Assembly: GCA_029339195.1 (NCBI GenBank)
Contig: JAPTJF010000024.1
Span: forward strand, 208,989-272,988
DNA from: Micractinium sp. NFX-FRZ
Lineage: Eukaryota; Chlorophyta; Trebouxiophyceae; Chlorellales; Chlorellaceae
Direction: 5' to 3'
Length of the DNA: 64,000 nucleotides
Below the pieces are notes generated by a model. The model searched no databases, was not told the origin of the DNA, and was given only the letters and a program-made list of their open reading frames with translations. Numbering within the stretch: position 1 is the stretch's first letter; every line of letters starts with the position of its first letter. The position numbers and the translations under genes are program-made. This document shows positions 30,261 through 61,121 of the stretch, in pieces.

Positions 30261-33200
30261 TCAGCTCTTAGAGCCGCTGATCTTGCGCCACAAGCCCCGC
30301 TTCTTGCGCCCGCCGGTGGGCGGCTGCTCAGCGGCAGCAGCGGCAGCGGCCAGAGGCGCCGCTGGCTGGGCCAGAGGCGCCGCCACCGCCGCCTCATGAA
30401 CCGGAGGCAGCGTGGGCGGGGCAGCCGGCGCCGGCGTGGGAGCGGCGGCGGCGGCAGCAGGTGGGGCAGGGGCCACAGCGGCAGACACCGCCGGTGCAGC
30501 CTCGACTGCCGCCGCCTGCACCGCGCCTGTGCCGGGGCCTGTGGCGGCCGCGAGTCAGTGGGCCGCGCCATTGGCATTGTGCATCACCAGGCCGTCGTTG
30601 CGCTTGCCGTGCAGCACAGAGCTCCTGCACACGGGCAGCAGGCAGCGGGGGTGAGCGATGGGTGGGCGCGGGACGGCGGCAGGTGGGCAGGGCAGGGCAG
30701 GGCAGGGCGGCGAGCGCCCTTCCGTCAGCGTCTGGCGTCGCACGGCAGGCGCACAGCAGGCCCCTCCTCCTTGCCCTCCTCCTCTGCTGCGGGCACGCAA
30801 GGCAAAACACCGGCTCGAGCACGCAGGCAAAGGCAGGGGCAGGGGCAGAGGCAGAGGCAGGGGCAGGCGCTCAGAGGCGGGAAAAGGCAGGGGCAGAGGG
30901 GCAGAGGGGCAGGGGCGGTGGTGCAGGCGGGCGCTCACAGGCGGGCGACGTTGGTGCGGCGGGCGGGGGGCGCCGTGGGCACCTCGTCGTCATCCTCCTC
31001 CGGGATGTTGTGCCCGGCGGCCTGTGGTTGAAAAGAAGACAGATGGGACGGGGAATTTATATTCAAGGATTCAGATACGCAAGGTTGTGGCCGGCGGCCT
31101 GTGCCAGAGACAAGAAATGGGGGGTTCAGGGACGGGATGTTGTGCCCGGCAACCTGTGTTTGAAAAGAAGACAGATGGGACATGGCAGTTAAATTCAAGG
31201 ACTCGGAAAACGAATGTTGTGCCCGGCGGCCTGTCTTTGAAAGGATCAAACATTATTAGGGCCCTTGGATGCATGCACAGGATGCCGACGAGGTGCATCC
31301 CCATCTCCTGTGTGCAGGTACACACCGCCCCCCCATTACACCAGCCGCCCCGTTACACCGCCCGTTACACCAGCCCTTGCCGCGTGTGATGCCCAGATAG
31401 GGGTTCGGCTTTAAGGGTTAGGGTGATGCACGCTGTTAGAAGAGCCCACTTTGAGCATGGTGATGAGGCTTTCCCTTCCCCTTGCACATACACTGGCGCC
31501 CCCTTCACAACAGTGTTGCCACATGTGCTGCAACTGCTCCCAGGAACGCCCTCCCACCTTGAGCATGTCGATGCAAACTTGGGTTGAAATTGTAACGATA
31601 GAAATAATAGGTTTAGGTTGATGCACGCTTAAGAAAGCCCCCGCGCACCTTGAGCATGTCGATGAGGCTCTTGGGGCGGATGCGCTTGATGCCCATGCCG
31701 TGCTCGTCCACAGACACAATCTGCGGCAGGGAGGGAGGAGAGGGGTGGGGTGGGGTGGGGCGGGTTCGGAGGCAGGCATTACAGCACGACGTGTTCGTGA
31801 CTCTGAAGGCAAGCCAAACGCAGGCGTGTGGGGAGTGGGTCTCGTTTACTGGCCCCCCGCCTCACGTCGCCACCCGAACTCGCGTGTGCCCCTTCCAACA
31901 AGGCAACTCCTAGGCGCTTGAAGAGTGAGGACCGCCGCTCCTCCTTGTTTCTGACAACAACGCAACACTTACAACAATGCAACAATGCAACACCCCCCGC
32001 CCACCTTGACCATGAACTCGTCGTGGGCGGAGCGCGAGACGACGGTGACGTGGTCGTTGGGCGCCACCCACCCATTGGCCAGCGCCAGCTGCACAGCCTC
32101 CTCAATCAGGCTCTCGCCCGCCACTGCAGATTACACGCGCAGGAGGAGCGGCAGGCGTACAAACGTTGTTAGGGAGGAGGGCCGAAGTGTGGTCGCGGCA
32201 AAAGGGGAGGAGGGGAGGAGGACGGAGGAGCCAAATGCACCGCCGCCATGCCCGAGCCAACGCCAGCCCGTGCATCAATGCCAGAGAGAGGTGTGTCAGC
32301 CGGCAAGAGGCGCGCGACAGCAGGAGCTGCAGTAGCAGCAGGCGGCGGCACCCAACAACACCCGACGGGCAAGCAGCAGCTGGCTGGGGACCAGGCCCGG
32401 CGGCGGGCGCACCAGAGGGCGTGGGCGCGGCCAGCATGGGCAGCAGGCCGGAGGTGAGCAGCGCCTGGCGTGCGGTGCTGCACCCCTCCAGCTTCCACTT
32501 GAGGCCGTCTCGCTTGAGGTAGGGGACGACCAGGGTCATGACGGGCACGGCGGGGCGGTACTTGGCCACCATGGCAGCCGTAGTGCCTGCAGCAAGGAAG
32601 AAGAACAGTGTTTCTGAGGTGTCTCAGAAGGCGCGGCAAAACCTCAGGACCAGCACCGGCGGCAGCGGTGCCTGGGAGCAAGGAAGTGACTGGAAGTTGA
32701 GGCGAGACGCGTGGAGGCGTGGGTGATGACAAATCAAACAGATCGAGCCAGGACCGCAGCCGCCCACAACTGCTGCGGATCACCAACCGTGTACGGCGTT
32801 GGCTGCCCAAGGCATCAACCGTAGGCTCCAACAACAGAGTTTGCACCGCCCCATGTTCCACGTCAGCACCGCCACCAGCCGTCAGAGCCTCACCGGTGTG
32901 GCTGACCGCCACCAAAAGAGCTTGAGTCCCTTCCCCCTCCCCCGGATCCCCTGAAAGCCTCCATTCTCCCCTGAAGCCTCCTGGTATCCCCACGAAAGCA
33001 CCGCCGGTGTGGGTGACCACCACCTTGAGCTTGGCCCGACCTTGTCCCCTCCTGTATCCCCACGAAAGCCTCCTTTATTCCCTAACGCCTCCCCATTCCC
33101 CATGAATCATAGCCTCACCGGTGTGCGTCACCACCACCATGAGCTTGGCGCCGACCTTGTCCGCCGACTTGACGGCAGAGGCGGCCACAGACTCCAGCTT

Positions 33201-35986
33201 GGCGGTGTAGGTGATGGGGGCGTTCATGTTGCTGCCCACGCTGCGGGAGGGGCGGGGGGGGGGGGAGGGGAGCGGGGCAACAGCGAGTGAGTTTAGTACA
33301 GGTGCTGGGGGGCGCTCATGTTGCTGCCCACGCTGCGGGAGGGGGCGGGGGACGGGGAGTGGGGCAAACACTGAGCGAGTTTGTGCAAGGCCGCTGAGGC
33401 AGGCGGTGGTGCGAGGTGGACACGGGTGATGTGTTGTTTGTTTTGGGGGGCTGGGGCAGGAAGCAGTGGAGGGAAGAGGGGGGAAAGAGGACATGTGTTG
33501 CACGCGCTTTTGAGGCGCCGCCCATTTGAGGCAGCCCTCCTCGCCGCGGCAGGCGGGCTATGGTGCCACGGAGCGATGCCCAGCCCTCCTGCTCCCCTGC
33601 CCCCGAACATGACACAGAGTTAAAGGGTATAAAACGCAGCACCCAGGGATGAGTGGCTCACCGGGGCAGTTGTGCCATGGAGGCCATGGAGTGGTGCATG
33701 CCGCCGTGGTCTGAGCCCAGGGATGCGTGGGAGATGGTGCGGCCCAGCTGGCGGTGGCGCGGCAGCTCCGGGTCCTCGTCGCTACCCAGGAAGTACTCGC
33801 TCTCCTGCGGGGATTGAGGAAGCCAGGGAGAAGGTCAGTGTGCAGGAAATGGGGGGAGCCCTAAGAACAGGGGCTACCTTCGAACGGGGTAAGCGTACGT
33901 GGCTCAAAGAGCAGCTCAGCAGCTGCCGGCGGCCCAGCACCCGCCACCTGTCGCCAACTCACCGCGTGCAGGTGGTCAAAGTGGTTGGCGTGGTCAAACA
34001 CCTCCTCAGCTGCCCGGCAGATGTCCACCACTGCGGGGCAGGGCGGGGCGGGAGGGGAGAGCAAGGTGAGTGTGTGCGTGCAAGCCGCGGGTTGCGGGCC
34101 GGCGAGGGCCCACCCCCCCCACACTGCCGACCAACTCCAAGGGCAAGCACACATGAATCCTCCGTGCAAGTGCAAACACACATGTGTGTCGGAACAAAGA
34201 GCGCCCCTCTGCCACCGGTGGCGACCGTATCCGCCGCTGGCTGCCGCCGGCCCGCCCGCCCCAGCAACGCACTCAACGACAGGCACAGTATAGCTAACCA
34301 AGTGACCGCAGGTGACCACAGCCCCTTACCCGTGTTGACCGTCTCCAGCGCGTAGTTGCCGCGGTACGTCTCCGCCCCCAGCATGATGGCGTCCACACCA
34401 TCCAGCACAGCATTGGCAATGTCCGTGGCCTCGGCGCTGCAGGAACGGGACGATGACAGAACACAAGTTGAAGGTCTTGTGTCAGTAAGGCAGTCCAGCA
34501 CAGCATTGGCAACTTCCGTGGCCTCGGCGCTGCAAGACCAAGAAGGGAGGGAGGGGGGAGTTGGGGTGTGCGTGAGCGGGAGCACAGGGCTGCGACGCTG
34601 CCCAGCACACCGTTGGCAATATCGGTGGCCTCAGCGCAGCGAAAGACAGCCCACCGCAGCAAGGGGGCAGCGCGAGATGCAAGCAAGCAAAGGAGGAAGG
34701 CAGAGAGCCTGGGCTCACCGCGTGGGGCGGGGCGTGCGGATCATGGTGTCGACGACGCGCGTGATGATGGAGGGGCGGCCCAGGATGGCGCACGTCGAGA
34801 TCATGGCCTTCTGGATCATGGCCATCTTCTCGGGGACCTGCAGGCGCAGCAGCGATCCCAGCGGTGGAAAAAGGGGTTGCCGGTCAGAAGGGCCATGATT
34901 CCCCCGGCCAATGGCCCATGCATTTCCACTCACAGCCTCCCCACGTCCCGGCGCGGGGCGCCACACGGAACGATGCCGGCGCCTGCGTGCCCCCTTCCCT
35001 CCCTACCCCCGACGGCTTTCCCTACTGCCCGTTTGTCCAGGAAGCACACACAACCGCAGCCTCAACCCGCCGGGTCGCCTCCTCCTCCCAGCCATGACCA
35101 AAGCTTCACCACATCCAGGCCCAGGCCGCCACTGGAGATCACACAAGGGAAGATGTATGAATTGCACCAAACACACACACACAACCGTCAGCGCCTGATG
35201 CATTTTGACCAATAGTCAAGTCGCACTCACCACATCCAGGCCCAGGTTGCCGCGTGAGATGATGATGGCATCAGAGGCGTCCACCAGGGTGCGGAAGTTG
35301 AACAGGCTCTGCCGCGTCTCGCACTTGGCGATGACCTGGCGGCAGGCGGGCAGTGGGGAGGCGGCAGGGAGGCGAGCGGGGGGTGATGCGTCGTGTTTAC
35401 AGGCGGGCGCTGGCTAGGCGGGCAGAGGCAGGAGTGCAGGCACGGCAGTGAGGCAGGCGGGATAGGCTTCGAATGTTCCTCACCTTGGTTTTGTGGTGCC
35501 GAAGCATGGAGAACTCCATCCCCCCCACCCTCCCGCACTCACACACGATCCCCACCTTGGTGTTGTCGGCGCCGATGGATGCCAGAAAGTCGCGGCACTC
35601 CATCACATCCTCGGCAGACCGGCAGTAGGAGAGGGACACAAAGTCGACCTCAAACTCGCTGCAGGGGGCGGGGCGGGGGAGGGGGGGCGCAGGCAGAAAG
35701 GGGTTGTTGGAGCGGGCGGGTGAGGCGGTGGGAGGGGGGGCACGCGGTCGAACCTTCGCATCGTACTTGTTGCTGCTGCTGCTGCTGCGCGCGCTATGAG
35801 CTAGTAAGTTAGCTAGAGCTAGATTCACTGAAGGCACCAGCCCTGCTGCTGCTGCTGCTGCTGCTGCTGCAGCAGCCGTTGCTTCGTGCTACCTGTGTCT
35901 CAGCACTCACTTGCAGAGGACCGGCCCTACTGCTGCCCCTGGCCGGGCGTGCCGTGCTGCCCTGCCCATCTGCAGAGCCTCAACCA

Positions 35987-36024
<38 letters not shown>

Positions 36025-39000
36025 AGGCTATGAACTAGTAAGGTGACTGCAGCAGCACTCACTTGCAGAGGACCTGGATGGCCTGCTTGTCAAAGTCGGT
36101 CAGCGCGGGCAGGTCGTTCTGCAGGTTGCTCAGGCTCTCTGCAGGGAGGGGGTGGGCGGCAGAGGGGAATGGGGGAGGCGGGTGGGTGAGGGCGTGGCCT
36201 ACAAACAAGAGCATTCCGAACACCGGGAGCGCTGTGTGGGGGCAGACGGTGAGCAGGCCCCTGCCCTGCCTTGCCCTGCCCTGCGTGCCGCCCACACCAG
36301 CTTCTGTCCCGCTTCATCCCACCCCACCCCACCGCACCGTTGGAGCGCTCGGTGTGGAAGCCCAGGAGGAGGGCCCCTGCTGCCTGTCCTGACCCTTCTC
36401 CCAGCACCCCACATATTGCTTGTTCTCACACACAACCAACACCCACCCACCGTTGGAGCGCTCAGTGTGGAAAACCATGAGCAGTCCGTCCAGCACGGCG
36501 TCAGAGTTGGCGGTGCACACCACGTTGTTGCCGCTCACCTCCTCAACCTGCAATCACAGAGGGAAGAGGTGCAGGAAGAGGAGCAGGACGATGGCAAGGG
36601 TGGGTGTGCGCGCGGCGGCGAGTCGGCAATGGCGGCGGCGCGCGGCACACGCCGCCCCGGTGCGCCGCCTCAAAGGTTGCGTGTTCAGAGGAAGGGTTAC
36701 CACGGCGCGGGAGCTTGGCGGCCACCCACGCACGCGCTCTCTCCGCATCAGCCAGCAGGCAGCCAGCAAAGGCAAGCAGCCAGGCAGCACAGCCGGGTGC
36801 AGGCCGCGTTTGCCTACGAGGGGACTCAAGGTCAACTCCCAAGCAAAGGACCAAAAAACCTTGGACATGTAAAGAAGCGAAGCTATCCGGAAATAAAAGT
36901 AACATCCACTATAGCAGCCAGGGTGCGGCCGCTCACCGTGAGGAAGACGGAGGATTCGTCGGCGCCGGTGGCCAGGTAGCGCCCCAGGAAGATGGAGTCG
37001 CCAGCCTGGCAGGTGGGTGATGTGGCACGATGACATGGCAGGGAGGGTGAGAGTCACGTGGCATGCTGCATCTCACAGCTGCTGTGACCTGGGGGCACGC
37101 GATGGGCAGCCGTCGCAGAGCACAGGCAGGGGACAGCACAACACAGAACAGCACGGCACAGCACAGCACGGCACGGCACAGCGTGGCGCAGCGTGCCTCA
37201 CCTCGCACATGGCGGGGAACTTGGGGTATGTGATGGGCAGCACCTCGTTGGTGCACTCGGCGCTGGTGTCGGTGGTGATGGTGACCTGGCGGGGGGAAGG
37301 CGGGGGGGAGGGGAGGGGCAGGAAGAGGAACGGGGGTCTGTGTGTGCGTGTGTATGTGTGTTGGGCTGGTGGCGGTGTGGGTGAAAGATCGACGCGCCCG
37401 TGCTGACGACGAGCTGGGCAGGGAGGGAAGGTGTATTGGAATAGGGATGCTGGTTGGGTAGGTGCTGCTCGACGGCACGCTGCGGCGTGAAGGGCAGGGG
37501 CAGCGTGAGAGAAGGCTCCGAGCAGCGCTGCCCCCACACTGTGCCCACCCCTCCCTCAAGGGCGCCTCTTGCACGAGTGCACTTTTAGATCCCCACCCGC
37601 CTGCTCAGTGCCAAGCCAGTGTCAGCTGCTCGATGCGCAGCACAGCACGCACAGCACAGCGCAGCGCAGCACGCACCCGCTGCCCCTTGGTGATCTTCAG
37701 CTGCTCAAAGATGCCCGGCCACCCGCTCTCGTCCACCCCGTATTTCCGCTTGATCATCAGCTCGCGGCCCAGGCAGTCCAGCATCACCGCGCACAGCCTG
37801 CACAGAGGGGACACAGCACAAGGAGGAGCACAAGCACACAGTGAGGTTAGGAGTGAAACAGTGTGGTGCACCCCCCGGCTGCCCAGAGTCGCCGCGCACA
37901 GCCTGCACACAGGGGCGTTGCTGGGCGATGGGTGCCAGTGGCGCGGTGGGACTGCAGGCAGTTGGGCACTACCGCACACAGCCTGGAGAGAGAGGATACT
38001 AGTGCACCATGTGGGCACGAGTCGCAGGGGGGGCAAAGTTGGAGTACGGCCCTGGCAGTCCAGCAGCGTCGCCGCACGCAGCGGTGGTGCAAGTGTGTGG
38101 ATGGGCCAGTAGCTAGGGATCCAGGCGCGGCACGAACACAGTCCAAAAAACAAGGCCAAGGGCGCGCCCGCCTCTTGCTGTTGTGCCTCGCGCCTTTTTA
38201 ACCGAGCAGCAAACAAGCATGCCGGCAATGACAAGGGCGCGCCCGCGCACCTCTTGGTGCGGCGCATCGCCTCTTGCAGGTTGAGCAGCGAGGTGCGGTG
38301 GTATTCGATGGGCGCCCACGTGAGGTCGATGCGCGCGCACGTCACCCCCGCCTCCAGCAGCGCCACCAGCTTGTCCACCGTCTGGCAGGCGGGGCCCACG
38401 GTGATGACGACTGCAGGCCGGGGGGGCGGGGGGGGGGGGGGAAACATTCAGATACACCATCAGGTGAATGGCAGAGCAGGAATCGGAGGGCTCACGGTGA
38501 TGACGAATGCGAGCGGGGGAGGGGGTCCCGGGGCGAGGGGGCAGGGGGGCAGCAGCAACACAGGTTGAGGGCTGGACAGGAGATGGGGGCAGGCGGGGCC
38601 CATGGTGGTGACGGCTGCACGTCGGGTAGTTTGGCAGGAGATGGGAGCGGGTGGCAAATGGGCCAGGAGGTGGATGGCAAGGGTGCAGAGAACACAGTGG
38701 AGGGCTAGGCGAAGAGGCAGGAGATGGGTTGGGGGCGGGAGTTGGGAGAGGGGGAGGATGAGCGGGTGCTGGGGCAGGGTGGGGGCAGGAGACGGGCAGG
38801 CGGGCGGGGTCTGCAGTGATTCCGGCAGCAACCGTGGGGCGAGGGAGCAGGAGGGGAGACGAAGAGAGCGGGAAGGCGAAGAGAAGTTGGGTGGAGAGAG
38901 GGGCAGAAGGCAGGGGAAGCGGGTGGAGATGGGGAGGTGAGGGGGAGGTGAGGGTGGAGGCGGTCAAGAGGCCAGAAGACATGAGCGGGCATAGAGGCAC

Positions 39001-48078: not shown

Positions 48079-51000
48079 TCAGCTCTCCATCTCCATGGGC
48101 TCCCCCTCCACCACTGTGACCGCCTTCTTGACGTCGTAAATGCGCTCCCGCACCACGGCTGCAGTTGGAAAGGGCGGTTGCACGGGCGGGGGAAGAGGGG
48201 AAGGTGGGAAGGGGACGGCTGGTTGAGAAGGGGCCAGGCAGGCAGGACAGCAGGACGGCGGCAGCAAGGGCAGGGCAGGGGTTGCGGAGGAGAACGGCAG
48301 CAAGGGCGGGGCAGGGGTGCGGAGCACGGAGGCAGCACGGGCAGGCAACACAGGCAGCTGGGCTTGGAGGGGTGCCGTAAGCAGGGCGTGGTGTGTGTGT
48401 CGTGGGCTTACAGGGCAAGGGCAAAGTGCGTGCCGGCAGCAACACCAGCAGCGGCCGGAGTGCCGGCAGCAGCTCCAGCAGCGGCACCAGCAGCGGCACC
48501 AGCACCAGCAGCGGCAGCAGCATCAGCAGAGGCACAATGAGTGGGGTGCCAACTCACGTACGGAGCCCGACGCAAACCGCTGGGGGAACTGCCGCTCGTA
48601 TGTCTTGGCCTGCAGGGGACAAGAAAGGACCACGCAATAGTAACATGACTAGACTCTGAGTGTCTCATAGCCGCTGTGTAAAATATACTGGCCTGAGGGG
48701 AGAGGAAGGGGTTCCCACAGCGCGCAGCGCCAGGGCCACAGCGCCAGCCCACCCCCACCCCCACCCCCTTCCGCACTCACACGCCTCCCATGCTGCCACA
48801 AGTTTGAGGTGAACAGACGTGTCACCCACCGTCAGTCAGTCAGTTCTCATGCTACCACAGCATGAGAAGGCCTGTGGCCCCCAGGCGCAGCTACTCAGCA
48901 AGCAAGCAAGCAGGCAGGCAAGCAAGCTGTAGGCTTCCCACCTGCAGGTACTCGTGGTTGCGCTTGTACTCCACCCCCTCCTGGGTGATGACGCACAGGT
49001 CCACGTTGCTGCCGCTGCCCAGGTCGTTGAACACGCCGCTCCTGCACACATTGAACCAAGGCAGAGGGCCGGGGCACGAGGCGCTGGGAGGGGCGCACGC
49101 AGAGGAACAAGGGGCAGGCCCAGGTTGCTGCCGGTTCCCAGGTCGTTCAACACGCCGCTCGCGCACAGAGCATGGGGGTGGCAGGGTGCCAGCTAGGTGG
49201 GTGCGGGGCGTGGCAAGGCGCCAGGGGGGCTTGCTGGGCCCGGCAGAGAGCACAGCAACCACCTGTTCATCCCACACCCACGCCTGCGCCTGATGATAAA
49301 CTGCTGATGCCCGTCTGGGCCACATGGTCCGTCCCCCCATGTGCCCATGTGACCCCTCCACGTCCCCAAACCAACCTTCCTGTTGCATGTGGCCAACCCG
49401 CAGCCCACTGCGGGAACACCGCTCCGCCCTCACACCATCCTTGTGCACCCACCGCCATGACACCCCCCCTGGCTTGTGCGCTCGTGCACCCTCAAACGAC
49501 CGCCTTGAGGTGCAAATGCATGCACGCTCTCTTGTGTCAACCAACCCACCTGATGGCGCGTGCCACCAGGTCCAATGCCTCCTCTTTGCTCATGTCATCC
49601 TTGTACCCCGCCTCGAACACCGCCATGGCATTGAGGCTGCACAGAGGGGGGCAGCAGACGTACAACAGGGAGGCTGTGAGGCACAACAATCGAATGGAGG
49701 TTCATGCCATTCTTGTGCCCGGCCTCAAACACGGGCTTACAGTGGAGGCTGCAGGGCAGAGCAGGGAGCGCAGATGCGGGTGCAGTGTGCAAGGCGCAGC
49801 AGGGCAGGGCTGGGCTGTGCAGGATGTGAAAGGAGGCGCAAGCAGGCAGTGGGAAACAGCGCAGGGTGGCGAAGCAAAACTGAGCAGGCAACCAGCCAGG
49901 CTTCGACCGCCGCTGCCCACGGCTGCATCCGGGCCCAAAGCTGTGGGCATGCGGCAGACGGCGCACCGACAGTGAGGCAGAACAGCGGCAGTGCCTCATT
50001 GCTGTCGCATCGCGCTTCATGCCATGCAGGTGCCATGCAATGCGACCAACCAGCGCCTCACCTGCCGCTGCCCATGGTTGCAAAGGGGAGCGAGTCTGTG
50101 GAGCCGTGCGGGTAGACGGTGAACAGGTGGGGGCCCCGGAAGTCGACCCCGCCCAGCACAAGCGCCGCAGACACATGGCCCTGGTACCTACAGCACACAC
50201 AAGGATGCGGTTGCACGGTTGTACACAACAGAAATTGCATGGAAGGCCAACTATCATGGAAGCTTGGCGCCGCGCGGCGAGCAGACGTATGCCCCCCATG
50301 TGGCCTCCACCCCCTCCACTAGAACGCACGTAGGCAAGGAGGCCATGCCCACCGCCTCACACCTGAACAGGTGGCTCTTGAGCAGCGTCATGGATGTGAC
50401 CACCCGCGACTGCGTGCCCGTGGCGTAGCGGTGCAGCTCCAGCTGGCTCGCCACCATGCCCGTCACCTGCAGAGGCGGGGGGCGGGAGACTAGCAATGTG
50501 CGTAAGTGCACAAGCCTATTAACAAGTGCAAAGGTGAATTCTTGAAGACGGGGCATCGCAGTGGGGCAGCCCCAGCATTTAGCACCCATGCCCATCACCT
50601 GAGGGGGCATGCGTGTGTGCAGAGCGGAGAGATGCACGTGCCGCGGATGTGGGCGCGAGGCCGTGCAACATTCCCAACCGCTCTGCCCTGCTCATGGCCC
50701 CACAGTTTCCTCAGTCCACAATCCCCACCGCCGCCACGCCCCCACATAAGCTGCCACCCCGAGGCCACCCGACAGTCCCCTCCCTGGCCTCCACGCACAT
50801 TCTCTGTGTCTGCTGCCGTGCCCGCCCCGCAGCAGTAGATGTTGGGCGCGATGAAGTGGATCTTCTCGCAGTTCTTGTCCGCCACTGTGGTGCCTGCTGT
50901 GGACCGGGTGTCTGCGCCTAGTACCACGCCGTCCTGCGGTAGTGCGAGGCGGGTGGTAGGGGACAGGTGGTGCAGCATGGGCGGAAGTACCGTGTGGAAG

Positions 51001-51935: not shown

Positions 51936-54739
51936 ATGACGGAAATCGTGGACCCCACCATACCGGTCGTCAAAAACATGCTGCTGCTGGACTCTGAGGG
52001 CAAGCGGATTGCGGTCAAGTACTTTACGCCCGAGATGTGAGCACAAGCGCCCCGCTGCAGGCCTCGCAAGCGCCCCTACTGCCCACAGCGACGCCACCCG
52101 CCACTGCACTACCGCCGGTGCCGCCCCGCGCTCCGCTGCGCTGCCTGCCCCTTGCCCCTGCTCTTTTGCACTTTCCCGCGTCCCTCAGCGTCCTGGTGAA
52201 CTCTCTTGAAAGTTTTCTTTCGTGCAGGAACAGCGTGGCGTCGCAGGCCAACTACGAGAAGTCGGTGTTTGCCAAGACGGCGCGCACCAACGCGCGGGGG
52301 GAGGGTGAGCGTCGGCACGCAGCTTGGCTGGCTTGCTCTCAGCAGGCTGCGCGCCCGCGGCCCCTATTGTTGCTGGAGCTCCCGCTGATGCTGCCCCTGC
52401 TGCTGCAACTGCCTGCGTGCTGATCGGTGCTGCTGCTGCTGGTGCCGGGTGCTTGCTGCTTGTCGTCGCAGCCAGCACCCAACCGCCCATGTTGTGCCCG
52501 CCTGGTGCATTCCCCTGCGTTGCTGGGTGCTGCAGCCAGGGTTGTGAAGGTGGTTCGGAACTCATCATTCATGTGATGTCGTATCCGTGAACGTTGTTTC
52601 GTCCATTCCTTGTTTATTCTGCAGCAAACCGCGGTGTTGGTCCGCAACTTCCTCCCTCCCGACCATCTCAATGTACAACGTGCCCGTGTCCTGCATGCCT
52701 TCCAATTCCATGTGCAGACGAGACCATGGTGTTCGGCGCTGTGGTGGTGGTGTACATATTCTTTCCTGATATCCAGTCAGCAACTCACTGTGTGCCTTCA
52801 CACCTTCCAATTCCGGGTGCAGCCGAGATCATCATGTTTGACGACGTGGTGGTGGTGTACAAGTTCCTGGGTGACCTCATGTTCTACGTGACGGGGGACC
52901 AGGACGAGAACGAGGTGGGTGGGCAGCTGAGGCAGAGGGGGAGGCACAGCGGGGCGGGGGGTGGTGCCACAGAGGTTGTTTGGAGGGTGGGCAGAGGGCC
53001 CCCCAGCATGCTCTACATCCACTGGGGATCAGGGCAGCACGGCAGGGATGGAGAGCCAGGGATGGGCGAGCAGCCGAGGGCAGGCCTGTGGTCCAGCAGT
53101 TATCGCGCAGCGCACGGAGAGCGGCGGGCGGCAGGTGCAGAGTGCGGGGCAGTGGCTAGCAGGCGCACTTGGAAGCGCTGCCCTGCCCCCCCACCGGCCG
53201 GCCCAGCTTCATGCGCCCTGACGTCCAAGGTTTCACATGCCCCCATGTACTGCCTGCCCTGTCCCGCAGGTGGTGCTGTACAGCGTGCTGCAGGCATTCT
53301 ACGAGTCCATCAACTTGCTGCTGCGGTGAGGGGGCGCAGGGCACTTAGGCTGGGTCAGCGGGCAGAAACCTGTGTTTCTGTGCTAGGCTAAGCCTGCCGT
53401 ACCCTTGCTAGAAACAGCCTGTGCGCAGCAACGTGTGCACAAGTCCATCAAACCTGCTGCTATGCTGAGGGCAGGTGGGCACCGTGGGTGAACCGGGCTG
53501 CTGACCAGGCCGAGCCACGGATGTGTGAAGGACTCGAAACTTCCATGACGCAAAAAGCACTTGCTTTGGTGCTGCAGGAATGCTGTGGAGCAGAAGGCAA
53601 TGTGCTGAGAATCCGAAGCAGCGCTCCACCAATGTCAAGCCATCTTTGTATGCCCCATGTTGCTGCCGCAGGAATGCTGTTGAGAAGAAGACGGTGCTGG
53701 AGAATCTGGACCTGGTGCTGCTGGCCATGGACGAAATTGTGGACGGAGGGTGAGGGGGCAGGACGCATTCTTTGCTGACCATGTGGGACTCATTTTGGAA
53801 GGGCCTTGTATGCGGCTTGGTTCGCATGATGAGACGGGCAGGGGGGCGGCTGCTAGGCTGGCTGTGTGGTCCCATCTTACACCCACTCACCTTCCTGCCT
53901 GCCCCTGTGTGTCATGTCATGCTGCAGGCTGATCCTGGAGGCTGATCCTGGAGACGGACGCTTCCACTCTGGCCACCCGCATTGTGCACCCACCTCACGC
54001 CTGCCTGCCCCTGTGCGTCATGTTTTGAGCTCCCATCTTACCCCTTGTATTATCATGCTGCAGGCTGATCCTTGAGACGGACTCCTCCACGGTGGCCACC
54101 CGCGTGACGATGCGCCAGGACGGCGACGGCAGCCCCATGAGCGCAGACGCAGCCAACGTGAGGCCGCCCTGCCTGCTGTGTGGTGCCTTGCCTGTCGTGC
54201 GGTTGTGCACGGTGCTGGGTGGTGTGTGTGCGTGTGTTGGGGATTGGGGCAGGGTGGATTGCACGCCTACGGAATCAAGCACTCGACATATGCATGAGCT
54301 GGTGCTTCTCAGCGGCTGCACAGCATGATGTGCCCTGCTTGGGGGGCTGTGCTGCGCACTTCTGCGCTGCCAGCTGTCGTGCCGGCTGCAGGCCTGCCCG
54401 CACACGACTCGCGCTGGCTGGCCGCACGTGATGGCCTGCACTGCAAGCTGCGCAGCGCTTGTTAGCCGGTGCCGCATGCCTGCGCTGCCTCCTCCTTCGC
54501 TGGCTGCCACTGCTGCCGTGGTGCTGGGGCATGCCACGGCCTCATCCAACCGCCCGCCCCCTGCATCACCCTTTTTCCTGCCCCTTCGGCTTCCCCAAAC
54601 AACACCCTTCCTGCCCCCTCGCCTTCCCCAAACAACACCCTTCCTGCCCCCTCGCCTTCTGCAGAACCCCGGCCTGGTGACGCTCTCGCAAGCATTCGGG
54701 TCCATCAAGGAGCAGGTGGCGCGGTCGCTACTGAAATGA
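51936..54739 (+). CDS. Coatomer subunit zeta (COPI coat)
   Basis: Seven exons: 51936-52036, 52228-52304, 52823-52914, 53270-53325, 53672-53749, 54064-54157, 54665-54739; 190 residues. The longin-like small subunit is shown by VVKNMLLLDSEGKRIAVKYF, NYEKSVFAKTARTN, VVVVYKFLGDLMFYVTG, VLYSVLQAFYESINLLLR, NAVEKKTVLENLDLVLLAMD, EIVDGGLILETDS and the end FGSIKEQVARSLLK. Zeta pairs with gamma-COP in the F-subcomplex of the COPI coat, acting in retrograde Golgi-to-ER vesicle transport. Length fits the family. Introns 2, 4 and 5 contain copies of the following acceptor junction; intron 4 also echoes the exon 4 donor junction near 53430-53470. Confidence 0.95.
52681..52880. repeat. Copy of coatomer zeta exon 3 acceptor junction
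   Basis: CTTCCAATTCCGGGTGCAG before the true exon (start 52823) is matched by CTTCCAATTCCATGTGCAG before 52718, 105 bp upstream. Both are followed by GAGA(T/C)C and later GTGGTGGTGGTGTACA. The upstream copy is open and in frame with the true exon. Confidence 0.9.
53572..53712. repeat. Copy of coatomer zeta exon 5 acceptor junction
   Basis: GCAGGAATGCTGTTGAGAAG at the true exon start (53672) is matched by GCAGGAATGCTGTGGAGCAG at 53578, 94 bp upstream, then GTGCTG(A/G)AGAATC-like sequence in both. Confidence 0.85.
53890..54110. repeat. Copies of coatomer zeta exon 6 acceptor junction
   Basis: CATGCTGCAGGCTGATCCT occurs at 53928 and at the true exon start 54064, 136 bp apart, both followed by GAGACGGAC...GGCCACCCGC. 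The upstream copy has a further 13-bp duplication (GGCTGATCCTGGA). Confidence 0.88.
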
Positions 54740-56000
54740 AAATGCAACACCCGCAGCAGCACACACAAATGCAACACTTCACAACAGGCGGCACGCACGC
54801 GGCGGCCGCCGGCTGAAGCACCCCACACGTGCAGCTGGCGGTTGGGCGCTGCAGCACCGCGCGCAGCTCCGTTCATGCAGCCGGCCGCCTCCTTCCTTTC
54901 TCTGCGTGCCTGTTTGGCGCCCTCGCAGGGCAGCCTGGCGTGGACTGCTTTGCGCGTGCAATGATTGATTTTCGCTTTTGCTACCTCTGCCGATTCTCCT
55001 CCTCCATGGAGGCAGCCTGCCCACACTTGGAACCAACTTGTACTGGCCACCATCCCAGTCCACAGTGCTGCGTGCTCTTGGCCAGCGGCGGCAGCAGAGA
55101 CCCATCCACACAGCCGGCACCGGCGCACAGAGCGTGGGTACAATTGCACAGTTGAGCGCAGGGCGCATTGCCGCTGCTGCGTGGCGCGCTTCTGCGCACA
55201 ACAGTTGGCAGTGGGGCAGGGAAACAGGGGAGTGGGCTATGGCAGCGGAGGACCAGGCAACCAGCTGCGCGGCCAAGGCACAGACAAAACTAAGGGGGGA
55301 TGGGTTGGGGGGCGGAAATTGAGCCGGGCAAGAAGGGAGGGAGCGCTCAGCGCTGTGTTGACTTGCGGCTCCAAAGCCAATACGGGTGGGTGCGATACAA
55401 AGCGGTGGAAAAAGTGAGCAGGTGGCGCTCATGGCAGGCGGCAGTTCCCGCGAGCAAAGGGGTTGTCTGATTTAAATTGACGGAGAAAAGGGTTGGTTCG
55501 GTTCGAAAACTCACAAAACACACTGATGGGAGGGATGGGCGCACGGGGGTGCACACAAGCTACGGTCTAAAATTGCACCAGGGGTGCGCTTGGGGGCAGT
55601 TGAGCGAGCCCCGCCGAGCTCCCTGGCCGAGAGGGAAGAAAGGGGGGCAAGGAATTGGCAGTGTGGGAGATCCATAAAGGGGAGGGTCTGCCCCGTCTCA
55701 TACGTTGATCGTCGTCAAGAGGAGCGCAAGCGAACAAACAAACTTCAGTGGCTGAGGGGGGTGCGGCGCCAGGTGGCGCCGTCTCAGGTGAAAACGTGGG
55801 GTGGCAAGGGCGCCCTGGCGGGATGTCTCTAGGGCGGGACCACAGGCGGCACAGCGGAGCGGGCGCCCGGCGGCTGCGCTTCCAGGCAGTGGGGGGTAGC
55901 GCCATGGGGGTTCCGTAACAGCTTCCCCCCGGCGCCGCAGCCGCCTGTGGGAGCTGGGGTGCCAGGGTGGCATCAGCACAGCACAGCACAGCGTGCCACC
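54740..56000. other. Convergent intergenic region, coatomer zeta and NAD kinase
   Basis: 1.26 kb with both 3' UTRs. No gene and no clear TGTAA signal found. Confidence 0.5.
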
Positions 56001-59000
56001 TCAGTTGAGGTCCATGCTGGAGGCCGCGCTGCCCACGCTGCACATGCTGCTGACCGCTGCGCCTGCTGAGCTGCCGCTGCCATTGCTAATGCCGCTGCCG
56101 TTGCCGTTGCTCGCCCCGCCGTGGGAGGCCAGCTGCTTGGAGAGCAGCACCTGGTCAAGGGGCTGCTGCTCGATGCGCTCGCTCCACTGGAAGCAGCGCT
56201 GGATGGAGGAGAACCAGTCGGTGGTCTGCGGCATGGGGAAGAAGGACACATTAGAGGTAACAGGCGGCAATAGAGGGAGGAGCGCTGGAAGCTGTGCTGG
56301 ACAGAGGAACCAGTCGGTGGTCAGCAGCATGGGGTCGGAGAGATAAGTGAGATAAGAAATGGGTAGAAACAGGAGCGCTGGAAGCAGCGCTGCATGCAGG
56401 AGAACCAGTCAGGGGTGTGCACAACAGGAGGGAAGGCTTGCAGTGAGTGAAGGGCTGGGGTAAGAGGGAGGAGCACCGGAAGCAGCGCTGAATGGAGGCG
56501 AACGGCCAGAGGGACAACAACACGTGCAGACAGAACACGCGCCTAGTCTGCGGGCCCTTTTACTTCTGGGCTCAGGGCTTGGGGGGCATGCGCGCGCGCG
56601 GACGGGCGGGCGGGCCAGAGTAACAAACTATCAAGCAACCAAGCAGTGGGGACCCACCTGGTCTGCGTGGTTGATCGTGGGCACCGGGTTGGGACTCATG
56701 CGCACGCGTATCGAGTCGCCCTGCACCAGCTCCCGGCTGTCCCGCCCGTCAAAGCAGACCACAGCGGGGCAGCGCGCGTCGGGGGAGATGCGCAGCTCCA
56801 GCTCAACATAATCCGGCAGGATGACGGGGCTGCAAGGGACGCAGGTGACATGGCAATAGTTAGTATGGGATGCGAGTAGCACACCTGCACTACCCATCAG
56901 CCCTGCACGTAGTATGGGCAGGATGACGGGGCTGCAAGGGGTGCCACGAATCAACAGTGATGTGTAGCAAGAGAAAAAGGGACAGAGGTGGGGATGCGAG
57001 TGCCGCACGTAGTCAGGCAGGATGACGGGCCTGCACGCAATGCAGGCGACACAGTGATGTATGTGAACGGGTGAGGCAGAGAGCAGGAGAGTGTTGAGGA
57101 TGCAAGTGCAGCACGTGAGCCGGTAGGATGACGGGGCTGCACACCATGTTGTAAAGGAGTGAGCACGGAAGAGCAACGTCCACAGCCAGGCCCCTCCCCA
57201 GCAGCATCAGTTACAGTGGGTGGCTGCCCCTGCTGGAGGCGCTCAGGCTCACCGGAAGTTGAGGGAGTGTGGGCAGATGGGGGTGAAGAGGATGGCGGGC
57301 ACCGAGGGGTGAACCATGGAGCCGCCTGCAGTGGGGAGGCAGGCAGGCAGGCAGGAGGCAGGGCAGGAGTGTGTGTGTGCAGTGCGGTGGGTGCAGGGGG
57401 AGGAGGAAGGGAAGAAAGGGAGGGACCAGGAGGGGTGCGCCATGGAGCCGCCTGCGGTGGGGCAGAGGCAGGCAGAAGGCGGAGAGAACGCAAGTGTGGG
57501 CACTGTGGTGGGTGCAGGGGGAGGGGGCCGGCAAGAGGCTGGCGGGGCAGAGGGGTGCATCAAAAAAATTGACTGCGAGGCGGCCCGAACGTCACACCAG
57601 CTGCATGTTTGGCGGGTTCAGGAAAGCGGAGTGCGACCAGCATGACACCATCAACACCACCCCACCTGCCCGCCCCACCTGCCGCCACGTTGTACGCTGT
57701 CGAGCCGGTGGGCGTGGCCAGCATGACGCCGTCCGCCTGCACCTTCGTGATCAGCTGGTCGTGCTCATACACCTGGAGAGAGAGAGAGGGTGAGGCAGGG
57801 GCAGTCCAAAGCAAGTGCGGGTTCGGGGGGGGGTCGTGGCGGCGCAGAGGAGGCAGGGTGGGGAGTGCGGGGCGTGCTCGCACACCGGCTGCTGCCATGT
57901 TGCCGCCTGGCCTGCCGCCGGGCACCCACGGCGCAGCAGTGGCACGCGCAGCCGAGGGAGTCGTACCTCGATTTTGGAGAGGTACGGGTTGGCACCCCGA
58001 GAGAGGACCACCTCGTTGAGCACCTCAAACGCCTCGGAGGCCTCGCTGGCGCCGTGCCTGCAGGGGGCAAGGACAGACACGCCACTTTCTATCTTTACAG
58101 ATGTAGTGCAGTTAAAACAGATGTTGCGATTGTGCGTCTGTCCAGCACACTGTAGCCGCGGTTGCATCCTTTCTATTGATCACAATAGCGTGATTGCAGC
58201 CCGCTCCCCAGCCTCGCCGGAGCAGGCAGTGGCAGGCCGTGTTGCTTGTTGACCGCCGGAGCGCAGGCGCCGTCGCCGCTGCGGCCCCCAGGCCACACCC
58301 AGCAACAAGGCGGTCAGCCCCGCAGGCCAGACCCAGCAACAACGCAAGCAGCCCGCAGGCCAGACCCAGCAACAAGGCGGGCAGCCCCCCAAGCCACACC
58401 AGCAACAAGGCCGGCAGCCGCCCGCCCTCCGACCCCTACCTCCAGATCTCGCACTGCAGGCGCATGCGCAGCGTGATGTGCACGCCGCGCAGCGGGCTGG
58501 CGTCGGCCGAGGAGACGAGCTGGCAGGAGGCGAGCTCTTGGCAGCCGTGCACCACGTTGTGCAGGTGCCGCTGGTAGTCGGCGTAGCTGCGGGAAGGCGG
58601 AGCAAGAAGGAGGAAGGCAGAGATGGTGAGGGAAGGCAGGTGTGGAGGCAGTTGTGAGGGCAGTCGCGCCCCGCGTGGTGCTGGTGCTGCTGGTAGTCGG
58701 CACAGCTGCGGCACGGGAGATCGCTTTGCAACCAACGTTGACATTGCTACTGTGGCCTACTGTCGGAGGGCCTCGCCAGCTGTCCAACCATCCTGTGCCT
58801 GGCTCCTGCCCTCTCCACCCAAGTGTGGGAATGCGCAGCATGCGCGGGCCACTGTGCCCGCTCACTTGTGTGCTGTGAGGAAGCCCAGCGAGCCGAGCTT
58901 GAAGGAGATGATGGGGGGCAGGGCGGAGCCAAACAGGCTGGCAGCTGCAGCACAAGGGATGGGCAGACTTGGTTGAGATGCGGGAGGGAGGGAGGCTGGA

Positions 59001-61121
59001 AGGATTGATGGGGGGCAAGGCGGAGGCACACAGGCTGGCAGATGCACCACAGGGATCAAGGGAAGGGTGGAGTGTGTTGCTGTTGACATCAGCAGCCTGG
59101 AAAAAGGCGTGCGGCTGGCAGCGGGCACGGCGGTGCAGCTTGCAGCGCAGGCAGCCTGCAGCTGACTGACCGCTCTGCTTCTCGCCCCTGACCCTCCCTA
59201 CACATGCACCTGACCCTCGCCCCACACCGTGCATCAAGCACCCCGCGAACCAGCCCAGGCAGCCCACCGTGCAGCAGGGTGCCGTCCCCTCCCAGGCAGA
59301 CGATGAAGTCGACAAATGAGTGCAGCTCAGGCAGGTCCTCCGGCGCATAGCTGTCCACCCACTTCATGCACAGGCCCTCCTGCAGGGGTGCGGGGGTGAA
59401 GTGTGGGAACCAGGGCGGAGAGCAGGAGGCAAGGTGCTGCGGCGCATAGCATGTCCACCCACTTCATGCACAGGCCCTCCTGCAAGAGGGTGGGAGTAAG
59501 GGCGGATGGTCAGAGGCAAGGTGGTACGGTGCATACGTGCCCACCCACTTGCAAGCACAGCCCCTCCAACATGCCCGCCCCGCCCGCTCCTCGGTGCCTG
59601 ACGCAACCTCAACCCCTGTGCTCCATTCACATGTTCACATGCCCCCCTCACTCACCAGCTCCCGGTAGTCGCGCGGCTTCACCACCACCCTTCATGCTCA
59701 CCCCATTCCCACCTCCACACCCAAGCTCCGTCCTGCTCATGCATGATCATATATGCCCCCCACCCTCCCCTCACCAGCTCTTTGTAGTCGTGCGGCTCCA
59801 CCACCACCCGCATGCCCAGCTCCTCCCCCAGGTAGCGCAGCACATCCACATACTCCTCCATCAGCTCATCCCCCAGCTTCTTCAGCACCATGACGCTGCA
59901 GGGGCAGGCAGAAAGGGTGAATTGGTTATTGTTGTGATTGATATGAATCAAGTTCTTTATTCATGTTTTCTTTTTTTGGGCACGTGCAGTGAGTAGGCGC
60001 CTCCATGGCCCAGATTCTTCAGGACCATGACGCTGCAGGGAGGGGAGGGGGCATGGTGTAGGCGAAGGAGGGAGCAGGGGAAAGGCGGCAGATGGTGGGC
60101 GCGGGAGCACCGCCCGCCACGCTGCATATAGAACTCCGCCCACCGCCTCCCTGCCTGCCCTGCAGCATACAGCAAGGCTGCTTGGGCAGCAGCAGCGGCA
60201 GCGGCGGCAGCAGCAGTCTGCCGACAGCCGCCTGGCGCGCCGCTGCGCCATTCCCGGGCCGGGCTGGCCGCCACATCCCTGGAAGTCGCATACGATGATT
60301 AGGCACAAGAGCAGCACGGGTGCAGAGGTCCCCAGGCTGCCTGCTCACCGGCGGGGGCGTGTCTTCCACACCAAGAGCTGCTGCTGGCTGCTGGGGCAAG
60401 CAAACTGCAAGTTGCCGCTGGCTGCACGGGTGGGTGGGGACAGGTGGGATTTGGGGGATGGGGCACGTCAAGCAGCGAACAGCAGGGCGTGGGGCAGGCG
60501 GCGACAGCTGCTTGGGGCGGGCCAGGCCCGGCGCAGAGAGGCGCAGAGGCAGGCGAGCACGGCAGGCACTGCCGCGAGCGCAGGCGAGCAGCCACCGCTG
60601 TTGCTTGCTTCAGAGCAGGCGAATTGCAGGTTGGCGGGCTGGCAGGCGCCGAGCAGATGTGGCGTGGATGGGCAGGCAGGGGCCGGGGCAAGTGCAAGGG
60701 GGAATGGCAGGCAAGGGCCGGCAAGGGGCACGCAGCGGCACGCACGCTGCACGGTCTCGCGGGTGCACGAGTGGCCGTCGCTGCGCAGCAAGTACAGCTC
60801 GCTCTTCTGAGGCCACTGCATGGCAGTGCGCTGATCCTGCTGCGTGCTGGAGCAGGGTGCCTCGCAGGCAAACCGCGGCACCTGCACCATGCTGCTGCTG
60901 CTGCTGCTGCTGGCGGGCACCGCAGCTGCCGCCAGGCTCGTGGCAGCGCCCGCGGCACTGCCGCCGCCGCAGGTGCCATTGCTTGAGCAGTCCCCGCCGG
61001 TCGCCGGGGCTGCCTCCGCAACGCAGGCCAGACGGGGACGCCGCTGGGAAAAGGCGCGGGAGTGCTGAGGGAGCGGAGGGGCGGGACTGCGCGCTCGGCA
61101 GCTCAGTCGGGAGACTTGCAT
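56001..61121 (-). CDS. NAD kinase, probably plastid-targeted
   Basis: Eleven exons on the minus strand: 61121-60746, 60421-60349, 59895-59775, 59379-59268, 58944-58866, 58586-58440, 58057-57967, 57772-57679, 57325-57253, 56829-56658, 56225-56001; 520 residues. It phosphorylates NAD to NADP with ATP. Landmarks: [21 protein letters not shown]; the ATP-binding G220-G221-D222-G223-T224 motif in [50 protein letters not shown] (from D347), the NAD-binding signature; and [23 protein letters not shown]. The N-terminus ([13 protein letters not shown]...[11 protein letters not shown]) is Ser/Arg/Ala-rich and looks like a plastid leader. The C-terminal tail is Ser/Gly/Asn-rich. Almost every intron carries copies of its downstream acceptor junction. 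Confidence 0.95.
56188..56510. repeat. Array of NAD kinase exon 11 acceptor junction copies
   Basis: AGGAGAACCAGTCGGTGGT (true exon start 56225) is followed at 96 bp by AGAGGAACCAGTCGGTGGT (56321), then at 95 bp by AGGAGAACCAGTCAGGGGT (56416), and about 98 bp later by a weaker copy near 56488-56510. GGAAGC(A/T)G(C/T)GCTG precedes each. Confidence 0.9.
56816..57146. repeat. Regular ~100-bp array of NAD kinase exon 10 acceptor junction
   Basis: GGCAGGATGACGGGGCTGCA at the true acceptor (exon start 56829) recurs at 56931, 57030 and 57136, spacings 102, 99 and 106. Several also keep the upstream exon bases (GTAGTCAGGCAGGATG). Between copies the sequence has diverged. Confidence 0.92.
57304..57470. 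repeat. Copy of NAD kinase exon 9 acceptor junction
   Basis: CCATGGAGCCGCCTGCAGTG (exon start 57325) is repeated as CCATGGAGCCGCCTGCGGTG with edge at 57451, 126 bp away. The GAGGGGTG preceding it is repeated too. Confidence 0.9.
58911..59060. repeat. Copy of NAD kinase exon 5 acceptor junction
   Basis: GATGGGGGGCAGGGCGGAG...CAGGCTGGCAG at the true exon (start 58944) is repeated at 59005-59041, 97 bp away. A similar but weaker copy of the exon 6 junction lies at 58705 (119 bp from 58586). Confidence 0.85.
59341..59580. repeat. Copies of NAD kinase exon 4 acceptor junction
   Basis: CACCCACTTCATGCACAGGC CCTCCTGCA at the true exon (start 59379) is copied almost perfectly at 59455-59483, 100 bp away. 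A weaker third copy is near 59537-59570. Confidence 0.9.
59652..60036. repeat. Copies of both edges of NAD kinase exon 3
   Basis: The acceptor edge (exon start 59895, CACCATGACGCTGCAGGG) is echoed at 60032, 137 bp away. The donor edge (exon end 59775, CTCACCAGCTC...GTAGTCGTGCGGC) is echoed about 117 bp away at 59655-59690. One exon is therefore flanked by echoes on both sides. Confidence 0.85.

What the first reader, a model, noticed from the sequence alone, without database searches (positions are those of the whole stretch)
31001..60036. Introns carry tandem copies of the neighbouring exon-intron junction
Seen directly: in pyruvate kinase, NAD kinase, coatomer zeta and proteasome beta-2, at least 20 intron segments are recognisable copies of an adjacent splice junction. 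Each includes coding bases, the splice site and adjoining intron bases. Measured acceptor-side spacings include 92, 93, 94, 95, 96, 97, 99, 100, 102, 105, 105, 106, 107, 112, 119, 119, 126, 136 and 137 bp. Donor-side spacings are similar (91, 108, 111, 113, 114, 121). Copies decay with distance. Weaker cases occur in THF1, the Rxt3-like gene and the cupin gene. This fits repeated local tandem duplication seeded at exon edges, an unusual route of intron growth that I cannot match to a named element.
Basis: partly seen in the sequence, partly recalled or inferred. Interest (0 to 1): 0.92.

Follow-up and report, generated by a model that had tools for sequence, protein, structure and literature searches.

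The report
Introns grow from duplicated splice junctions
In the sampled part of this green-alga genome about one intron in four carries faded copies of the exon edge next to it, mostly about 110 bases away, which points to introns lengthening step by step by copying their own splice junctions.

Summary
Confirmed, and not confined to the reported stretch. In 314 kb (window plus five 50-kb stretches) my gene finder gave 442 testable introns. A 45-bp exon edge matches its own neighbouring intron at p<=.005 in 69/442 acceptor and 71/442 donor tests; reverse-complement controls give 6 and 3, wrong-intron controls 4/255 and 2/251. Outside the reported stretch 95/397 introns carry a copy.

Of 140 copies 104 lie 80-142 bp away; this spacing does not depend on how much exon was copied (14-62 bp, once 79). 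The intron part of the unit is recognisably duplicated too in 30 of 97 cases, so at least those are tandem duplications. Copies mutate evenly over codon positions; introns with copies are longer. Intergenic DNA and intron interiors are poor in this class: simulated uniform duplication predicts roughly 100-200 internal pairs, 16 were seen.

Best reading: repeated tandem duplication straddling splice junctions, silent because the outer splice site beside the complete exon stays in use. What targets junctions and sets the step is unknown. The geometry is published for one potato gene; my searches listed no genome-scale report, but the first Chlorella genome paper was not readable.

The parts
31022..31648 (-). 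Predicted intron near the 3' end of the pyruvate kinase model with acceptor-edge copy 31133-31150 (P 132) and donor-edge copy 31451-31472 (P 199); doubtful, terminal exons of this model are uncertain
   Evidence: intron-part homology of the unit 67/81
33005..33047 (-). Copy of donor-side exon edge, intron 32587-33118, P 115, 40/44; second copy 223 bp away
   Evidence: whole unit also found by TRF as 32946-33162 period 114
33296..33332 (-). Copy of acceptor-side exon edge, intron 33241-33661, P 92, 32/37
33545..33579 (-). Copy of donor-side exon edge, intron 33241-33661, P 118, 26/36
34216..34249 (-). Copy of donor-side exon edge, intron 34031-34329, P 115, 25/35
34494..34529 (-). Copy of acceptor-side exon edge, intron 34437-34718, P 93, 34/36; a second copy lies 200 bp from the exon
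35110..35141 (-). Copy of donor-side exon edge, intron 34838-35230, P 121, 26/32
36338..36371 (-). Copy of donor-side exon edge, intron 36139-36450, P 113, 29/34; second copy at 228
38047..38082 (-). Copy of acceptor-side exon edge, intron 37798-38250, P 285, 29/36; another at 105
38172..38212 (-). Copy of donor-side exon edge, intron 37798-38250, P 79, 26/41 (weak)
38588..38613 (-). Copy of acceptor-side exon edge, intron 38411-39456, P 204, 24/26; another at 96
49116..49160 (-). Proteasome beta: copy of acceptor-side exon edge, intron 49042-49549, P 119, 40/45
49704..49748 (-). Copy of acceptor-side exon edge, intron 49637-50061, P 112, 32/45
49907..49946 (-). Copy of donor-side exon edge, intron 49637-50061, P 155, 29/40
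50557..50598 (-). Copy of acceptor-side exon edge, intron 50467-50798, P 132, 31/43
52719..52761 (+). Coatomer zeta: copy of acceptor-side exon edge, intron 52305-52822, P 105, 34/43
53007..53041 (+). Copy of donor-side exon edge, intron 52915-53269, P 129, 27/36
53419..53461 (+). Copy of donor-side exon edge, intron 53326-53671, P 138, 29/43
53578..53621 (+). Copy of acceptor-side exon edge, intron 53326-53671, P 94, 34/45; my gene finder first took it for an exon, but the protein without it aligns full length to relatives
53941..53982 (+). Copy of acceptor-side exon edge, intron 53750-54063, P 123, 36/42
56376..56416 (-). NAD kinase: copy of acceptor-side exon edge, intron 56226-56657, P 191, 36/41; another at 96
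56543..56592 (-). Copy of donor-side exon edge, intron 56226-56657, P 110, 33/50
56991..57029 (-). Copy of acceptor-side exon edge, intron 56830-57252, P 201, 33/44; another at 307
57409..57451 (-). Copy of acceptor-side exon edge, intron 57326-57678, P 126, 34/45; another at 246
58661..58705 (-). Copy of acceptor-side exon edge, intron 58587-58865, P 119, 36/45
58999..59041 (-). Copy of acceptor-side exon edge, intron 58945-59267, P 97, 39/44
59434..59479 (-). Copy of acceptor-side exon edge, intron 59380-59774, P 100, 43/46; second copy at 187
59656..59700 (-). Copy of donor-side exon edge, intron 59380-59774, P 118, 37/45
60004..60032 (-). Copy of acceptor-side exon edge, intron 59896-60348, P 137, 25/29

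Best explanation
SHOWN in the 314 kb examined: introns contain direct copies of the adjoining exon edge, on both the acceptor and donor side, most of them spaced 80-142 bp (median 112 outside the window). The exon part is 14-62 bp (once 79; shorter ones would escape detection); spacing does not depend on it. Where the intron part is still readable, the whole unit (exon edge plus the rest of the ~110 bp from the intron) is tandemly duplicated. Some junctions have a second copy one more step of similar size away, as a rule more faded. Copies decay as non-coding DNA. This class is concentrated at splice junctions and scarce in intron interiors and intergenic DNA. INFERRED: a tandem duplication of about 110 bp that straddles a splice junction is silent, because the splice site beside the complete exon stays in use and the truncated copy is left in the intron. 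The intron is longer by one step, and the junction can be duplicated again. INFERRED, weakly: because internal duplications are missing, the mutation itself is drawn to splice junctions, most likely by something tied to transcription or splicing there (polymerase pausing, R-loop edges) or to chromatin at exon edges, followed by local re-copying of about 110 bp.
For: Excess over controls; 95/397 introns outside the reported stretch; spacing peak and its independence of the exon part; exon part ends by about +60; tail homology 30/97 and explicit whole-unit alignments; of 30 junctions with a second copy the nearer one is more like the exon in 24, and the second step is 80-142 bp in 24; uniform codon-position mismatches, acceptor 124/725, 137/722, 140/717 and donor 103/545, 95/544, 114/548; copies in 5/59 introns of 120-180 bp but 46/80 of 400-600 bp; 41 of 57 intron-intron pairs at 80-140 bp exon-like against 5 of 54 at 20-50 bp, and 3 pairs in 65.9 kb intergenic; simulation of uniform duplication; the two NAD kinase paralogues have the same exon layout but share only 2 of 14 copy-bearing junctions.
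Against: Tail homology is found in only 14 of 29 cases with exon-copy identity >=.85, where simulation expects .84-1.0, so either the intron part decays faster than the exon part or some copies are not simple tandem duplications. Copy-to-copy identity lies below both copy-to-exon values in only 16 of 30 arrays and above the farther one in 12, so the exon is not clearly the source of every copy. Genes differ strongly (chi2 144, df 51), and 48 junctions of four kinase paralogues have none. The stop-codon control, which argues for junction targeting, is small (2/51). Intron tiles away from junctions are also above the nominal 1% (10-18/160). Third codon positions show almost no extra change, which is odd unless synonymous sites are strongly constrained. 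No related genome or RNA data were available. Exons come from my own gene finder.
Confidence: 0.6

Rival explanations
1. Ordinary random tandem duplication everywhere in genes, with purifying selection removing those that change the mRNA; junction copies are only the visible survivors because one partner (the exon) does not decay.
For: Explains why copies sit in introns, why the exon part is short (a duplicated splice site with truncated exon loses against the complete one; the classic duplicated-splice-site experiments are recalled, not read) and why copies decay neutrally.
Against: Simulation with the same kind of detection predicts 6.0 to 0.03 internal pairs per junction copy depending on age, about 200 in sum for the 104 observed divergences (my arithmetic; 87 of the 104 reach the score cut of the simulation). 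The same simulation also over-predicts tail-to-tail pairs of the junction units themselves about twofold (about 86 by my arithmetic, 41 exon-like pairs seen); even halved, about 100 internal pairs are expected against 16 seen, 11 of which start within 55 bp of a donor. Intergenic DNA has 3 pairs in 65.9 kb. Copies over stop codons, equally silent, are 2/51 (P .009).
Confidence: 0.2
2. Copies are maintained: short-tract gene conversion from the exon, or selection for an RNA signal, keeps the exon-derived piece similar while the intron around it turns over.
For: Exon part outlasts the intron part in about half of well-preserved cases; exon-level co-occurrence of acceptor and donor copies, 25 against 15.4 within-gene null; in a kinase paralogue pair exon columns are 88% identical, other aligned columns 63%.
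Against: Splice dinucleotides in copies survive at about the neutral rate (32/50 and 24/37) and mismatches are even over codon positions; fading with distance in 24 of 30.
Confidence: 0.12
3. A mobile or introner-like element carrying exon-like ends inserts near junctions.
For: Near-constant spacing of about 112 bp resembles a fixed-size insert.
Against: Units are private: 7 of 104 have any other blastn hit in 314 kb, the printed ones 24-35 bp long; of four whole-genome queries three match only their own locus, and one also hits an exon of a paralogue; a fifth, 7-kb query matched elsewhere only through two repeat stretches. Each copy derives from its own exon.
Confidence: 0.03
4. Artefact: assembly duplication, low complexity, or unrecognised real exons (repeated exons, alternative exons).
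For: My gene finder took 12 copies for exons.
Against: About 20% mean divergence; reverse-complement and wrong-intron controls near background; coatomer zeta without the copy aligns over its whole length to the Micractinium protein.
Confidence: 0.03

Closest known systems
Tandem duplication across an intron-exon boundary in potato RdRp (PMC4974935, abstract and passages seen)
   Same: [quoted passage not shown] a small piece of the upstream exon copy becomes intronic.
   Different: One gene, one event, and it made a new intron with a cryptic donor; here pre-existing introns lengthen, in about a quarter of the introns tested, on both donor and acceptor side, with a near-constant step.
[quoted passage not shown]
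   Same: Short tandem duplication in a gene absorbed by splicing.
   Different: That model needs an exonic AGGT that supplies both splice sites of a new intron; here existing junctions are duplicated and no enrichment of GT-starting or AG-ending exons is seen.
Novel Drosophila intron positions by intron sliding or tandem duplication (PMC2891723, abstract seen)
   Same: Exonic duplication followed by intronization of one copy.
   Different: New positions (25 cases in 31 genes, only some by duplication) from coding sequence with a proto-splice site; not lengthening of existing introns.
Introners (PMC9860276, passages seen)
   Same: Genome-wide change of intron content; reported mainly in fast-evolving lineages such as green algae.
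   Different: Dispersed similar elements; here the units tested are private to their own junction.

Membership tests
[quoted passage not shown]
   whole-unit homology in 30 of 97 cases; not shown for the rest
[quoted passage not shown]
   exons starting GT 12/69 with copy, 71/373 without; exons ending AG 37/71 and 208/371
[quoted passage not shown]
   NAD kinase paralogues have the same 11-exon layout although their copies differ, which speaks against; no outgroup genome
Junction-crossing tandem duplication as in potato RdRp | unit spans intron 3' side and exon 5' side (or the mirror) | tested here: met
Junction-crossing tandem duplication as in potato RdRp | creates an additional intron and changes the mRNA | tested here: inconclusive
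   coatomer zeta only: the protein without the copy aligns full length to relatives, which speaks against; no RNA data for any gene
Introner elements | near-identical sequence shared by many introns | tested here: not met
   7 of 104 units with any hit elsewhere in 314 kb; whole-genome queries 4, 72-74
Introner elements | short target site duplications and terminal inverted repeats | not tested
   no shared element found to test
Minisatellite or simple tandem repeat turnover | short head-to-tail units independent of gene structure | tested here: not met
   the class at 80-140 bp is mostly junction-bound (41 of 57 pairs exon-like); the separate 20-50 bp class in introns is not (5 of 54)

The most novel reading that the evidence does not exclude
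A mutational process aimed at splice junctions re-copies about 110 bp around either splice site, so that introns lengthen in near-constant steps using their own exon edges as template; splicing makes each step silent, which turns it into a ratchet that builds introns in this lineage.
Probability: 0.4. Interest if true: 0.9.

Novelty: new variant of a known kind. Interest (0 to 1): 0.75.

Why it matters
How introns lengthen, apart from transposons, is poorly documented. Here one genome shows a common, stepwise, self-templated route whose steps can be counted and, with relatives, dated, and it hints that splice junctions themselves attract mutation. It also warns annotators: copies can keep open frames and splice-like ends and are easily called as exons.

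Tried and rejected
Tried: (1) exons were taken from a self-trained HMM gene finder seeded with hand-read pyruvate kinase exons. (2) An extension with loose X-drop to measure the exon part overran into random sequence and was replaced by strict local alignment. (3) 'Young' cases chosen by strict-alignment identity (script ended in an error after printing) were mis-selected; redone with the 45-bp identity. (4) Recursive splicing through AG|GT was tested through exon start and end dinucleotides and not supported. (5) Spacing modulo 3 shows no clear bias (26/15/23 acceptor, 15/20/23 donor). (6) Exon length does not set the spacing. (7) Expression as driver: only proxies; copy fraction correlates with GC3 (rho .48), but a citrate synthase-like gene (C1 gene 2) has 1/26. 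(8) Paralogues: kinase genes on L028-L031 gave no copies; the NAD kinase paralogue L032 gave six. (9) A correlation of first and second step length (rho .71) came from 16 of 20 arrays that I had picked by hand; with all 20 it is .25 and with all 30 arrays .17, not significant, so I withdraw it. Breakpoint microhomology was not measured. Rows dropped before counts: 518 introns to 442 usable (intron >=120 bp, exons >=45 bp, no N), 12 copies called as exons merged into introns; 36 of 140 copies outside 80-142 bp left out of the anatomy tests (several are second-step copies); 97 of 104 cases used for tail homology (alignment >=25 bp); tile scan on the 160 introns of 330 bp or more.

Full report
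What was examined. The window is part of contig C24 of a 66.1-Mb, 838-contig assembly. Coatomer zeta from the window is closest to Micractinium conductrix (91%) and Chlorella vulgaris (90%) among the 120 hits listed of 652, so the organism is probably a chlorellacean alga; the species was not determined. I analysed the window plus five 50-kb stretches (C1, C3, C5, C8, C12 positions 50001-100000), 314 kb in all, about 0.5% of the assembly. A self-trained hidden-Markov gene finder gave 64 genes, 594 exons and 534 introns. Twelve called exons that were copies of a neighbour were put back into introns, leaving 518 introns, 442 of them testable.

The first 45 bp of an exon match the last 300 bp of the upstream intron at p<=.005 in 69 of 442 tests, and the last 45 bp match the first 300 bp of the downstream intron in 71 of 442; about 2 are expected. 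Controls: reverse complement 6/442 and 3/442; exon start against its downstream intron 4/255; exon end against its upstream intron 2/251; coding start against 5' flank 1/44; coding end against 3' flank 2/51, one of these in a repetitive proline-rich end. 118 of 442 introns have at least one copy, in every stretch sampled: W 33/81, C1 24/82, C3 15/57, C5 17/87, C8 12/66, C12 17/69.

Spacing. Acceptor copies: 59 of 69 at 83-137 bp, none below 83, none at 138-164, the rest at 165-285; donor copies: 44 of 71 at 80-140, four below 80, the rest up to 299. Non-significant best hits are spread broadly. The range 80-142 bp holds 104 cases: exon part 14-62 bp with one of 79, median 39; remainder 26-113, median 71.5. 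Exon parts below about 14 would not be seen. Spacing is the same in every class of exon part (83-138 bp for the shortest, 88-141 for the longest), so the step length, not the exon part, is the steadier quantity. Acceptor and donor sides behave alike. The two sides of one exon do not share a step length (rho .09, 19 exons), nor do first and second steps within an array (rho .17, 30 arrays).

Anatomy. Homology covers the exon edge to about +55 and then stops. The intron part of the unit is significantly homologous in 30 of 97 cases, 14 of 29 when the exon copy is >=85% identical; simulation expects .84-1.0 for those. Clear whole-unit examples are the intron 32587-33118 (also found by TRF), C1 35353, C3 28620 and C5 29330. 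The shortfall is not explained: intron parts may decay faster, or some copies may not be simple tandem duplications. A second copy (score >=78, no p-value) is present at 30 of 140 junctions; the second step is 80-142 bp in 24, and the nearer copy is more like the exon in 24. Copy-to-copy identity is below both copy-to-exon values in 16 and above that of the farther copy in 12, so many but not all arrays look as if the exon were the repeated source.

Fate. Exon-copy mismatches are even over codon positions (acceptor 17.1, 19.0, 19.5%; donor 18.9, 17.5, 20.8%), and the splice dinucleotide survives in 32 of 50 acceptor and 24 of 37 donor copies whose alignment reaches the junction, about the neutral expectation. 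Copies therefore behave as non-coding DNA. Introns with copies are longer (median 383.5 against 259.5 bp); the share with copies rises from 5/59 at 120-180 bp to 46/80 at 400-600 bp, then 7/19 above 600. Longer introns also give more room for a copy, so length alone does not prove growth.

Junction-specific or general? In 160 introns of 330 bp or more, 45-bp tiles were tested for a copy 78-142 bp intron-ward (nominal 1%): exon edge 48/160 (acceptor) and 43/160 (donor), exon interior at +45 1/115 and 2/116 (from +60 to +90 1 to 5 of 60-99), intron tiles from -45 outward 10-18/160, which include array members. Of 57 intron-intron pairs at 80-140 bp, 41 contain exon-like sequence at a 1% null; of 54 pairs at 20-50 bp 5, of 26 at 50-80 bp 5. 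Intergenic DNA has 3 pairs at 80-140 bp in 65.9 kb. I simulated uniform tandem duplication with the observed step lengths, exon part capped at 55 bp and neutral decay, one event per intron: 6.0, 4.4, 1.7.39.09 and .03 internal non-exon-like pairs per detected junction copy for rising age. Weighted by the 104 observed divergences this is about 200 pairs (my arithmetic). The simulation also over-predicts the tail-to-tail pairs of junction units about twofold (about 86 against 41), so roughly 100 is a fairer figure; 16 were seen, 11 of them starting within 55 bp of a donor. Plain random duplication filtered by selection is therefore a poor fit, unless internal repeats are erased much faster.

Heterogeneity. 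Genes differ (chi2 144 on 51 df) and copy fraction correlates with GC3 (rho .48, p 3e-4, 52 genes). Acceptor and donor copies meet at the same exon more often than a within-gene shuffle gives (25 against 15.4, p .0005), less clearly at the same intron (22 against 17.9, p .10). Slower change of some exons would make their copies visible longer, so part of this may be detection. Four kinase paralogues have none in 48 junctions (chance 2.6e-4). A NAD kinase paralogue at C98 has the same exon layout and six copies at p .005, of which two lie at junctions that also carry one in the window gene (10 of 20 junctions; junctions matched by eye). Copies thus seem to come and go within the life of a gene pair.

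Not an element. Blastn of the 104 units against 314 kb finds other places for 7, the printed hits 24-35 bp long. Four whole-genome DNA searches with copy-bearing stretches find the locus itself, its own copies, or one exon of the NAD kinase paralogue; a 7-kb query matched elsewhere only at two repeat stretches.

How it most likely works. A tandem duplication of about 110 bp straddling a junction leaves the outer splice site beside the complete exon and places a truncated junction inside the intron. If the outer site wins, the mRNA is unchanged and the intron has grown; the copy decays and the junction can be duplicated again. That the truncated site loses fits the limit of about 60 bp on the exon part (inference; duplicated-splice-site experiments are recalled, not read). 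Why the mutation is drawn to junctions and why the step is about 110 bp is open; polymerase pausing, R-loop edges or nucleosomes at exon edges are candidates without direct evidence here.

Compared with what is known. The potato RdRp gene has one tandem duplication crossing an intron-exon boundary, which made a new intron (PMC4974935, abstract and passages). The Rogers model needs a duplicated exonic AGGT (PMC3443670, passages); no such enrichment is seen here. Ten library searches (lists capped at 10-20, two empty) showed no report of the genome-wide pattern in their listings. The C. variabilis NC64A genome paper is not held; I have a vague, unchecked memory that repeats of exon ends in introns may be mentioned there, so priority is uncertain. 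The Coccomyxa, Auxenochlorella and chlorovirus papers, searched for intron terms, do not describe it in the passages shown.

Verdict. Real in every stretch sampled, junction-bound intron growth by copying of exon edges; a new variant of a known kind, with the targeting unexplained.

Noticed in passing
L028 and L029 (kinase paralogues, C684): Exon columns are 88% identical (775/882) while other aligned columns are 63% (990/1561) and most introns hardly align by eye, so intron sequence turns over fast relative to coding sequence.
   Followed up: partly
L029, last intron: Tandem duplication of about 51 bp inside the intron, absent from the paralogue L028 (read by eye): the short-period class of repeats is separate and recent.
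   Followed up: no
all contigs sampled: Strong differences between genes in copy frequency (chi2 144, df 51) and a correlation with GC3; flavodiiron-like and GFAT-like genes rich, citrate synthase-like and ferric reductase-like genes poor (names by my reading).
   Followed up: partly
window 48430-48535 and 52355-52466: Two GC-rich repeat stretches inside introns (proteasome, coatomer) with dozens of similar places genome-wide.
   Followed up: no
window 1483-1582: Run of 100 N.
   Followed up: no
L032 (C98:32001-41000): Second NAD kinase gene with the same exon layout and its own, mostly different junction copies.
   Followed up: yes
12 places in 314 kb, e.g. window 53578-53601, 59459-59479, 59988-60032: Junction copies are called as small in-frame exons by a gene finder; public annotations of such genomes may contain the same errors.
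   Followed up: partly
104 copies with spacing 80-142: Third codon positions show hardly more mismatches than first and second, so exons changed little even at synonymous sites while copies lost about 18%; unexplained.
   Followed up: no
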